IMG/VR virus record: IMGVR_UViG_3300042543_000175
Span: 1-56,545 of that record
Origin: a virus
Length of the DNA stretch: 56,545 nt
Strand: one strand, 5' to 3'
The notes beneath the pieces are model-generated. The model did no database searches. It saw nothing but the letters and a program-made list of their open reading frames with translations, and was not told the origin of the DNA. Shown one piece after another: positions 41,129-43,214 of this stretch (position 1 is its first letter; every line of letters starts with the position of its first letter). The position numbers were made by a program, and so were the translations under genes.

Positions 41129-41745
41129 AGTTCCTCCTCGCTTTCGCTGACCCAGCGGCTTCCGACATGCTCGCAACTGAATTCTTGGCTGAAGACTTTC
41201 CAGTCGGGCTTGATGGGAAATTTCTTGGCAATAAACGATCCGCCATCCATCCACAGCACACGATTATTTGGTTGAATGAAATATTGCCCATCGCCCGCAA
41301 ATACATGGCCGCATTTATGCCCAGCGGCCATTTCTCCGTAGCCGCTAGTATATTGAGGGCCGAAACACCAGTCCAAGGTGAACATATACTTAGCCGCCTC
41401 AAAAGATTTGTTCTTGAGCATGATGTTTGCCGCACGATTCTTGCAGTAGTCTAGGATATTGACCGAGCAATAGTAGCTCATAGAGTCCCAGAGTTGTATC
41501 CAGTCTAACGGATAAAACGTCCCTCCAACATCATCAGTGTGGAGATAGTGGATCGGGACTCTGGCGTGTTGGCTTCCGTATTCCGTCATCACGCTAAACA
41601 TCCCGCAACGTTGTGGAATTGACGTATAGGCAAATACCTCGACTAGCTGCCTTTCGCGATTGACGTTGGGTTCCAAATCATAAAAGAATCCCTCGTCTAC
41701 AAAGGCAAAGAATGTCGGTATATTGACGTTGAGATAATTGCTCAT
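41098..41745 (-). CDS. Hypothetical protein
   Basis: 215 aa, aromatic-rich with 7 Cys, no signal peptide. Motifs YLHTDDVGGTFYPLDWIQLW and QPNNRVLWMDGGSFIAKKFP suggest an alpha/beta enzyme-like fold with conserved Asp pairs, but I cannot name it. Start overlaps the upstream stop (ATGA) and it carries the lipoprotein start inside its last 31 nt. Confidence 0.7.
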   Translation of the reverse strand: MSNYLNVNIPTFFAFVDEGFFYDLEPNVNRERQLVEVFAYTSIPQRCGMFSVMTEYGSQHARVPIHYLHTDDVGGTFYPLDWIQLWDSMSYYCSVNILDYCKNRAANIMLKNKSFEAAKYMFTLDWCFGPQYTSGYGEMAAGHKCGHVFAGDGQYFIQPNNRVLWMDGGSFIAKKFPIKPDWKVFSQEFSCEHVGSRWVSESEEELWFYDFKEQG

Positions 41746-42023
41746 TTGTCGGCAATCTGTTGAAGGAGTCGCGTCTGACGGCGGAGTTCTTCAAGCTGAT
41801 GGCTTGCCGCAATCTCCGCGCTTAAACGGTCGTTTGATTCTTTTAACTCTGCATTGATCCGCCTCATGGTCTGAAGAAGGGTATCCTTTGGTTGTGGGGA
41901 ATCAACAGATCCGTTGATAACTTGAATACGGCCCGAATCCAAATCAAAGACTGTACCCGAAAAGCTACCGTCTTGTGCCTGAATATTTGTAGCTAGTGTT
42001 AATAACAGTAGTAGTTTTTTCAT
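41742..42023 (-). CDS. Exported small coiled-coil protein
   Basis: 93 aa. MKKLLLLLTLATNIQAQDGS is a clear signal peptide with likely cleavage at AQA-type residues 15-17. The remainder has a short beta region (GTVFDLDSGRIQVI) and a charged coiled coil (INAELKESNDRLSAEIAASH). It should act in the periplasm. The structured RNA region lies directly upstream and forms its leader. Confidence 0.7.
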   Translation of the reverse strand: MKKLLLLLTLATNIQAQDGSFSGTVFDLDSGRIQVINGSVDSPQPKDTLLQTMRRINAELKESNDRLSAEIAASHQLEELRRQTRLLQQIADK

Positions 42024-42117
42024 AAAAGAGATTGGAGGCAGGGTGGCGCGGACTTCATTGGCCCCCCGACCTTTGAAGCTTTCGCATTTTCATGCTGGGT
42101 CTCCCCACCTCCAAAAG

Positions 42118-42183
42118 TGGTGGAGGAGTCGGCATTGCAGCCGAGTCCGCGCATTAAATGGCGCGTCGAACCTATTCTCCCCC
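42118..42183 (-). ncRNA. 66-nt tRNA/tmRNA-like domain ending in ACCA
   Basis: In minus orientation GGGGGAG (42183-42177) pairs with CTCCTCC (42128-42122) as a 7-bp acceptor stem with one wobble, followed by an encoded ACCA. Next comes AATAGGTTCGAC, like the stemless D-loop at the 5' end of tmRNAs (GGxTTCGAC). It is followed by a 5-bp arm CGCGC/GCGCG with 8-nt loop CATTTAAT, GAC, and a T-arm-like TCGGC/GCCGA with 6-nt loop TGCAAT. The GGAC...CTCCACCA-type 3' end also matches tmRNA. Unlike tmRNA there is no message or pseudoknot region. The T-loop is one base short and the D-stem is missing, so charging is uncertain. Confidence 0.6.
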
Positions 42184-42758
42184 TTAAAGTTGTCATGGAG
42201 TAATAGACCACAGCCGCTTCGCGGCGTTCAATATTTTTTCTTTTTTTTCTTTGGGGGTATTCGGCGGGCTAAAGCCGTGCGCCCGCCTATATAGCGGCTC
42301 TCTTTCGCTTGAACCCCGAACGCCGCCGTCATTGGATTAATAATTCCTTGAGCTAGATCCGACCGATTGACTACACCTCGCCCCCGCAGGGGCAAAGGCA
42401 TAGTCAAAATTGGATTCTCATTCCTATGAGTGAGTCCTCCGCTTTATTCCACAGATTGCGATCTAGGCTCCGAAGCCGCTAGTAGACCTTCAAACAACCG
42501 CAATCGACCTCCGAGGGTATTATCCCTCGCGCTTACTCTGTTGGCTGACACAATTTTTGTATATTTTATGTGTCAGGCTTGAAAGAAATACTTATATCTT
42601 TTTCTTTCAAAAACCAGAGATTCCCACGCCGCAATGTGTTCAGGCTATGGGACGGATGGCTGATCCGTAAGTGCGGCGGTTTTATCCTTGCATACCTCGT
42701 TACGGGGTTTAGTGGCGTATGTCGCGCCCACTTTGCGCTTGTCCTTCCAGACATGCGG

Positions 42759-42787
42759 AGGCTACGACACGTTCAAAATTAAGTCAA
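42759..42787 (-). promoter_or_regulatory. Possible promoter into the structured leader
   Basis: TTGACT (42787-42782), 17-nt spacer, TAGCCT (42764-42759) on the minus strand, directly after the sRNA terminator T-tract. It would transcribe the hairpin chain, the tRNA-like domain and the 42023-37702 operon. Confidence 0.4.
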
Positions 42788-42856
42788 GAAAAGAAAAAGG
42801 GTGCGGCTCCGAAGCGAGGTCTGGAAGACAAGCGCAACATTTTTGGAACCGCACCC
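42788..42856 (-). terminator. Rho-independent terminator of the candidate sRNA
   Basis: 12-bp stem formed by 42856-42845 and 42810-42799, then a minus-strand T-rich tract at 42798-42788. Confidence 0.65.
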
Positions 42857-42868
42857 AGATGCAAGGAT
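42788..42868 (-). ncRNA. Candidate ~80-nt small RNA with terminator
   Basis: A promoter at 42903-42875 would start a leftward transcript near 42868. It folds as GGGTGCGGTTCC/GGAGCCGCACCC (12 bp, one wobble) with an apical GTCT-TCC-AGAC hairpin and ends in TTTTTCTTTTC. Its two unpaired or loop segments are complementary to the adjacent leader RNA (see the inverted pair). Protein coding is excluded by length. Confidence 0.55.
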
Positions 42869-42874
42869 CGACGC

Positions 42875-42903
42875 AGAGTAACGCCAGTGTTGTAGAGTGT
42901 CAA
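42875..42903 (-). promoter_or_regulatory. Promoter of the candidate sRNA
   Basis: Perfect TTGACA (42903-42898), 17-nt spacer, TACTCT (42880-42875) on the minus strand. The -10 box matches only half of the consensus. Confidence 0.4.
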
Positions 42904-42923: not shown

Positions 42924-43214
42924 ATGGATAAAGAATCCTATAGATCCTACTTGAGAACGCCTTATTGGAAGGAAGTGAGCCGTCTTGTGAAAAAACGTTT
43001 TGGCTGGAGATGTGGGGTTTGCAACAGTCCCCTAGAACTCCAAGCCCACCACCGCACCTACGAACACCGAGGGGACGAACTCAACCATCTGGATGATCTG
43101 ATCTGCCTCTGCAAGCTCTGCCACAAATTGTTCCATAAAGAACAGAGGAAAGCCCGTAAACCACAGAGGGCGCAGAAACGAAAGTCTCCACGCCCCCGAA
43201 ATATTAATATTTGA
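42924..43214 (+). CDS. HNH endonuclease
   Basis: 96 aa. WRCGVCNSPLELQAHHRTYE then DDLICLCKLCHKLFHKEQRK gives C-x2-C, the catalytic HH and C-x2-C-H-x3-H of the HNH nuclease fold. The N-terminal YRSYLRTPYWKEVSRLVKKR is the usual basic lead helix of small HNH proteins. It cuts double-stranded DNA; roles in packaging or homing both occur. It sits immediately beside the hairpin-rich noncoding region, as intron-associated HNH genes do, though no intron is established. Confidence 0.85.
   Translation: MDKESYRSYLRTPYWKEVSRLVKKRFGWRCGVCNSPLELQAHHRTYEHRGDELNHLDDLICLCKLCHKLFHKEQRKARKPQRAQKRKSPRPRNINI

What the first reader, a model, noticed from the sequence alone, without database searches (positions are those of the whole stretch)
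42118..42183. tmRNA-like tRNA domain without a message region
A 66-nt minus-strand element pairs GGGGGAG with CTCCTCC, encodes ACCA, and carries GGTTCGAC and GGAC...CTCCACCA signatures of tmRNA ends, but only a 5-bp hairpin replaces the whole message and pseudoknot region. The T-loop is one base short and no D-stem exists. It lies in a chain of hairpins before an exported-protein operon. A phage RNA mimicking only the alanylated end of tmRNA could be a ribosome-rescue decoy, a charging-dependent leader or an inhibitor of host trans-translation. These roles are inference.
Basis: partly seen in the sequence, partly recalled or inferred. Interest (0 to 1): 0.85.

Follow-up and report, generated by a model that had tools for sequence, protein, structure and literature searches.

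The report
Phage mini-tmRNA lacking its message
A freshwater phage carries a 66-base RNA that is only the tRNA-like end of tmRNA, the bacterial ribosome-rescue RNA; close cousins occur in many unrelated phages, and a published experiment with a similar molecule suggests that such RNAs block the host's rescue system.

Summary
Window 42118-42183(-) is a complete tmRNA tRNA-like domain (TLD): 7-bp acceptor stem with the AlaRS identity pair G3.U70 and A73-CCA, the tmRNA D-loop GGTTCGAC, a 4-bp P2 hairpin in place of the message and pseudoknots, GGAC, and a 5-bp T-stem with a 6-nt T-loop (TGCAAT). A covariance model built only from unrelated phages finds it at exactly these ends (47.2 bits, E about 1e-8). 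It is not a pseudogene: stems covary in its own lineage and in unrelated phages that share the short T-loop. A stricter scan of 84,980 bacterial and archaeal genomes found six clear cases. Five cultured phages that I checked carry unannotated ones. The kind is known: mycobacteriophage DS6A has a TLD-only tmRNA, and a similar molecule inhibits tmRNA, charged or not (PMC4131195, citing Mao 2009). New here are the breadth, the short-T-loop subtype that ARAGORN and Rfam miss, and its place as one exchangeable cassette in a variable phage RNA array. The most likely role is a SmpB/ribosome decoy that damps host trans-translation. This is inferred, not shown for this RNA.

The parts
42118..42183 (-). 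TLD-only mini-tmRNA (whole element, 66 nt)
   Evidence: R1 covariance hit 47.2 bits, E 1.2e-8, model 1-78 of 78; covariation with unrelated phages
42177..42183 (-). acceptor stem, 5' strand GGGGGAG (G3 = 42181)
   Evidence: pairs with 42122-42128; 100% paired in A3, 3 pairs with two-sided changes
42165..42176 (-). D-loop region AATAGGTTCGAC, the tmRNA-type stemless D-arm
   Evidence: TCGAC invariant in alignment A1 of 59 mini-tmRNAs (TCGAC was fixed by the search pattern); matches the R1 consensus
42149..42164 (-). P2 hairpin GCGC-CATTTAAT-GCGC, in place of message and pseudoknots
   Evidence: 4 of 4 pairs have two-sided changes in A3
42145..42148 (-). GGAC junction before the T-arm
   Evidence: shared by all members collected; fixed by the search pattern
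42129..42144 (-). T-arm: 5-bp stem TCGGC/GCCGA with 6-nt loop TGCAAT
   Evidence: 4 of 5 stem pairs have two-sided changes; same 6-nt loop TGCRAT in L227 and L228-L231
42118..42128 (-). acceptor stem 3' strand CTCCTCC (U70 = 42124) plus A73-CCA
   Evidence: G3.U70 and A73, the known AlaRS identity elements; read directly from sequence
42114..42190 (-). exchangeable cassette unit: the 72-nt TLD unit between ACTTT microhomologies (42186-42190 and 42114-42118)
   Evidence: slot is 60 nt without it (7 contigs), 132 nt with it; other modules occupy the same slot in other relatives
42026..42116 (-). conserved structured 3' element of the array (TTTTGGAGG...CCTCCAATCTCTTTT), just before the ATG of the exported ORF
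   Evidence: present in all 31 relatives that span the slot; forms a closed multihelix domain in the MFE
41742..42023 (-). downstream ORF, 93 aa, N-terminus looks like an export signal; no family known
   Evidence: sequence; no Pfam match
42924..43214 (+). divergent HNH-endonuclease-like ORF (96 aa), bounds the array upstream
   Evidence: sequence motif read by eye; no Pfam match; conserved neighbour in relatives

Best explanation
The element is a natural TLD-only tmRNA: the aminoacyl-acceptor and SmpB-binding half of tmRNA without message or pseudoknots. Shown here: the fold, the AlaRS identity elements, conservation by covariation, recurrence in many unrelated phages, and its place as an exchangeable cassette on the same strand as the downstream phage operon. 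Inferred: it is transcribed from the array, trimmed at its 5' end by RNase P, alanylated by host AlaRS and bound by SmpB and EF-Tu. It thereby titrates SmpB, or enters stalled ribosomes without a message to resume on, and so damps host trans-translation during infection. The benefit to the phage could be protection of its own incomplete proteins from tagging, or exclusion of competing phages that need trans-translation.
For: Exact TLD anatomy with G3.U70 and A73-CCA. Independent model hit, E 1.2e-8. Covariation in the class: 98.5% of cells paired against 48-56% in slid controls, 12 of 17 pairs with two-sided changes. Covariation in the 6-nt T-loop subtype: 11 of 16 pairs. 84 distinct TLD-only RNAs from viral contigs, all with G at position 3 although A-U would also have paired. 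Sizes 66-89 nt; only 7 matches with a message gap of 45-75 nt. Near-absence from cellular genomes. Precedent: TLD-only tmRNA of phage DS6A, and strong inhibition of tmRNA by a similar molecule, charged or not, perhaps by titrating SmpB (PMC4131195; PMC11915505). Trans-translation matters to some phages: lambda-immP22 plates 10,000-fold worse on ssrA or smpB mutants (PMC2862035).
Against: No expression, charging or SmpB-binding data exist for this RNA. The 6-nt T-loop could weaken the T-loop/D-loop contact that SmpB recognises. No sigma-70 promoter was found in the region. The host is unknown. One relative (L010) lacks the encoded CCA. No SmpB gene was found in the record, so the RNA would have to use host SmpB.
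Confidence: 0.6

Rival explanations
1. Processing punctuation: the tRNA-like fold is there to be cut by RNase P and tRNA 3' nucleases, separating the other RNA modules of the array or trimming the operon leader. Mimicry of tmRNA is incidental.
For: It sits among other structured modules with short A/T-rich linkers and on the strand of the downstream operon. Class members often lie in or beside tRNA genes (30 of 110 loci have a tRNA or tmRNA call within 3 kb; L218, L239, L241).
Against: A tRNase substrate does not need G3.U70, the tmRNA D-loop and GGAC, all of which are kept. Arrays without the TLD are common in relatives (23 of 31), so the array does not need it. Pontimonas phage phiPsal1 carries one alone between capsid genes.
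Confidence: 0.13
2. Productive rescue without tagging: alanyl-TLD with SmpB enters stalled ribosomes, takes the nascent chain, and lets the ribosome be recycled by other factors, so phage fragments are not tagged for proteolysis.
For: AlaRS identity elements and acceptor end are conserved. Some phage growth depends on ribosome recycling by tmRNA rather than on tagging (PMC2862035).
Against: A TLD-only molecule inhibited tmRNA even when not chargeable (PMC4131195), and without a resume codon no termination step is known.
Confidence: 0.1
3. Decoy for something other than SmpB: a sponge for AlaRS or EF-Tu, or for a host defence that attacks tRNA-like or tmRNA molecules.
For: It lies in a rapidly swapped cassette slot, as accessory counter-defence genes often do.
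Against: No specific partner is known. A plain tRNA-Ala mimic would not need the tmRNA D-loop.
Confidence: 0.1
4. Relic: a tmRNA pseudogene, or an attachment-site fragment left by integration at ssrA.
For: Phages do integrate at tmRNA genes and carry 3' fragments (general knowledge; fragments noted in PMC4131195).
Against: Both acceptor strands, P2 and the T-arm covary. An attachment fragment would lack the 5' half. The same anatomy recurs in unrelated phages.
Confidence: 0.03

Closest known systems
TLD-only tmRNA of mycobacteriophage DS6A (Hudson 2014, PMC4131195; Mao 2009 as cited there)
   Same: [quoted passage not shown] a similar molecule inhibits tmRNA.
   Different: The DS6A record was not retrieved here, so no direct alignment was made. 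The window RNA has a 6-nt T-loop and sits in an exchangeable RNA cassette array of an uncultured freshwater phage.
Transfer-messenger RNA (Rfam RF00023) of bacteria and of phages such as Bxz1
   Same: Acceptor stem with G3.U70, A73-CCA, stemless D-arm with GGTTCGAC, GGAC, T-arm.
   Different: No message, resume codon, tag or pseudoknots; 66 nt instead of about 350; Rfam and ARAGORN miss this one.
CDS-less plastid tmRNAs of Mallomonadaceae, about 65 bp (PMC11915505)
   Same: TLD-sized tmRNA without tag reading frame.
   Different: Organellar, not viral.
Unannotated TLD-only RNAs of cultured phages found here: Streptomyces phages pSt2308, LuckySocke, Shaeky, BRock; Pontimonas phage phiPsal1
   Same: Same architecture, R1 53-58 bits, Rfam tmRNA 54-65 bits.
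   Different: 7-nt T-loop, longer P2 with an internal loop, CCA not encoded; four of the five lie among phage tRNA genes.

Membership tests
tmRNA (tRNA-like domain) | acceptor stem with G3.U70 and A73 | tested here: met
   G at 42181 with U at 42124, A73 at 42121; invariant in A3 and in 84 of 84 class members (U70 and A73 were fixed by the pattern, G3 was not)
tmRNA (tRNA-like domain) | stemless D-arm GGTTCGAC followed by P2, and GGAC before the T-arm | tested here: met
tmRNA (tRNA-like domain) | 7-nt T-loop TTCRANT on a 5-bp stem | tested here: not met
   loop is 6 nt, TGCAAT; stem of 5 bp is met and covaries
tmRNA (full, RF00023) | tag reading frame with resume codon, pseudoknots | tested here: not met
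   8-nt loop instead; Rfam below threshold
TLD-only (CDS-less) phage tmRNA, DS6A type | complete TLD closed by a short hairpin, no message, phage-borne | tested here: met
   R1, built without this lineage, matches end to end, E 1.2e-8; IMG/VR virus record
TLD-only (CDS-less) phage tmRNA, DS6A type | inhibits host trans-translation | not testable with these tools
   shown only for a similar molecule in the literature (PMC4131195)
two-piece (permuted) tmRNA | acceptor 3' piece precedes the 5' piece in the gene; message in a separate piece | tested here: not met
   both acceptor strands lie in one 66-nt piece in normal order; weak 13.6-bit match only
tRNA | D-stem and anticodon arm | tested here: not met
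   neither present; ARAGORN finds no tRNA

The most novel reading that the evidence does not exclude
Phages carry a widespread, largely unannotated class of TLD-only tmRNAs, including a subtype with a 6-nt T-loop adapted for binding without productive ribosome entry. They act as RNA anti-rescue or superinfection-exclusion factors that are exchanged as cassettes in variable RNA arrays.
Probability: 0.3. Interest if true: 0.85.

Novelty: new variant of a known kind. Interest (0 to 1): 0.64.

Why it matters
In the papers read here, TLD-only tmRNA was on record for one mycobacteriophage. Here it appears as a broad viral RNA class with strong covariation, almost confined to viruses, unannotated in the cultured phages checked, and with a subtype that standard tools miss. 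It makes a concrete question testable: do phages routinely switch off or hijack trans-translation with an RNA decoy? The cultured Streptomyces and Pontimonas phages give handles for an experiment.

Tried and rejected
BLAST of the array and of the terminase against cultured phages: no match. DnaB gave only distant helicases, so the host is unknown. Sigma-70 promoter scan: nothing. Pfam and PHROGs on neighbours: no informative family around the array. SmpB in the record: none. Fetching DS6A by two accession numbers recalled from memory failed. A taxon-wide model search failed for lack of a genome handle and was not needed after the genome scan. MAFFT alignment of all 59 mini-tmRNAs (A1) shifted the acceptor strands, so the model was built on 24 sequences with the same D-region length (A2). 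Rejected: two-piece tmRNA, attachment-site remnant, pseudogene, tRNA. Of the first pattern's 11 rows, L081 and L082 are chance matches. About ten rows are 3' ends of full tmRNAs or chance matches that lack the acceptor pairing, and were dropped. Loci L095/L114 and L138 carry overlapping ARAGORN full-tmRNA calls, and L181 a permuted one; these were not resolved.

Full report
What is there. The minus-strand sequence 42183-42118 reads GGGGGAG AATAGGTTCGAC GCGC CATTTAAT GCGC GGAC TCGGC TGCAAT GCCGA CTCCTCC ACCA. It is the tRNA-like domain of tmRNA drawn complete: 7-bp acceptor stem, tmRNA-type stemless D-arm, a P2 stem closed by an 8-nt loop, GGAC, a T-arm and encoded ACCA. It contains G3.U70 and A73, which are established AlaRS identity elements (general knowledge). 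The T-loop has six bases instead of seven. The ordered signature occurs once in the window and never in 100 shuffles. ARAGORN and Rfam report nothing, and no complete tmRNA was found in the record, which may be a fragment.

Relatives at the same locus. The DnaB gene of this phage drew in 80 loci of related phages, many from the same freshwater-type sample series (the habitat is inferred, not stated by the tools). In 31 contigs that span the site between the HNH-like ORF and the 93-aa exported ORF, the same slot is filled differently. Eight carry the TLD (132-nt slot, or longer with further modules). Eight carry a 59-nt module B alone, seven are empty (60-nt slot), and eight carry longer fillings: a 57-nt module C and a 160-200-nt module D in seven of them, with extra pieces in five, and in one (L058) an HNH gene with D. 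The TLD also occurs next to B (L067) or D (L022). A further TLD copy lies in the partial contig L080. The TLD unit is bracketed by ACTTT at both ends, and the empty slot has a single ACTTTT, so gain and loss look like exact cassette exchange. Modules B/C and D are themselves structured RNAs with compensatory changes.

Relatives elsewhere. 111 hits (84 distinct) have a perfect 7-bp acceptor stem, length 66-89 nt, and G at position 3 in all 84. U70, TCGAC, GGAC, the T-loop core and ACCA were fixed by the pattern, and the acceptor pairing was used to keep hits, so those features are not independent evidence. P2 and the T-stem were not selected for. On 24 of these sequences (A2) the three-helix structure is 98.5% paired, against 48-56% with the 3' partners slid by 1-3 columns; P2 has two-sided changes in 5 of 5 pairs and the T-stem in 4 of 5. 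A stricter pattern over 84,980 bacterial and archaeal species genomes gave eight rows, six of them clear TLD-only RNAs. Among the viral hits, 78 of 111 satisfy that stricter pattern. The form is therefore essentially viral. Forms with 45-75 nt between D-arm and GGAC are rare (7 contigs), so TLD-only is a discrete class.

Membership of the window element. Model R1 was built from A2, which contains none of this phage lineage. It finds the window element end to end at 47.2 bits, E 1.2e-8, and its relatives L022 and L067 at 49.2 and 46.0 bits. Full tmRNA 3' ends and tRNAs score at most 37 bits. A second pattern with a 6-nt T-loop (TGCNAT) found two unrelated phage lineages with the same short loop, L227 and L228-L231. 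Across these five sequences 11 of 16 pairs show two-sided changes and all cells pair. The short T-loop is thus a conserved subtype, not decay. Rfam's tmRNA model catches the 7-nt class (54-74 bits) but misses L227 and L228 and the window.

Cultured phages. BLAST with class members found unannotated TLD-only RNAs in Streptomyces phages pSt2308, LuckySocke, Shaeky and BRock and in Pontimonas phage phiPsal1. In the Streptomyces phages they lie among tRNA genes. In phiPsal1 the RNA lies between the prohead protease and capsid genes.

What it most likely does. The literature already holds the key precedent. [quoted passage not shown] repeated in PMC11915505). I read the original 2009 experiment only through these citations. 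Trans-translation matters for some phages: lambda-immP22 plates 10,000-fold worse without ssrA or smpB (PMC2862035). The best-supported mechanism is a decoy that binds host SmpB (and, if charged, EF-Tu and stalled ribosomes) and damps trans-translation. Whether this protects phage proteins or excludes competitors is open. Shown: fold, identity elements, conservation, distribution, cassette behaviour. Inferred: transcription, RNase P processing, alanylation, SmpB binding, inhibition.

Limits. There are no transcripts, no host, and no direct alignment with DS6A. One family member (L010) has lost the encoded CCA. A few contigs among the 111 also have overlapping ARAGORN tmRNA calls, which I did not resolve.

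Verdict. The element is real and conserved. It is a new variant (short T-loop, cassette-borne) of a known but little-noticed kind, TLD-only phage tmRNA, which turns out to be widespread.

Noticed in passing
window 42113-42240 (-) and L020, L027, L043, L062, L067, L071: A hypervariable slot of exchangeable structured RNA modules: B/C (57-59 nt, core CATTGAGGG...AGCGACCTGA with covarying stems) and D (160-200 nt, TGCTGGGCAG...CCCAGCA). None matched Rfam in the loci scanned. Possible new phage RNA families.
   Followed up: partly
window 42700-42900 (-): Region with a long possible pseudoknot-like pairing (GCGCTTGTCTTCCAGAC with GTCTGGAAGGACAAGCGC) inside an outer ATCCTTGCAT/ATGCAAGGAT stem; it could be the core of a large ornate noncoding RNA. 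Read by eye.
   Followed up: no
L058 3934-4576: An HNH-type endonuclease ORF has been inserted into the cassette slot (read by eye).
   Followed up: no
L008 2098-2171, L032 3247-3321, L043 3408-3483, L068 1849-1924: Relatives carry a tRNA-Met(CAT) beyond the HNH-like ORF at the edge of the array; the window lacks it.
   Followed up: no
L010 1336-1398: TLD copy whose encoded CCA is replaced by a new junction to an inserted module; it scores only 32.7 bits. A possible decaying copy, or one that depends on CCA addition.
   Followed up: no
L226 940-1372 (Brevundimonas phage Bajun), L225 951-1446 (crAssphage cr50_1): Annotated phage tmRNAs whose T-arm and CCA lie near the start of the annotated gene; either permuted genes or miscalls worth checking.
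   Followed up: no
L233, L234, L236, L237, L238: Intermediate-size tmRNA-like RNAs (112-127 nt, perfect acceptor stem) in viral contigs, between TLD-only and full tmRNA.
   Followed up: no
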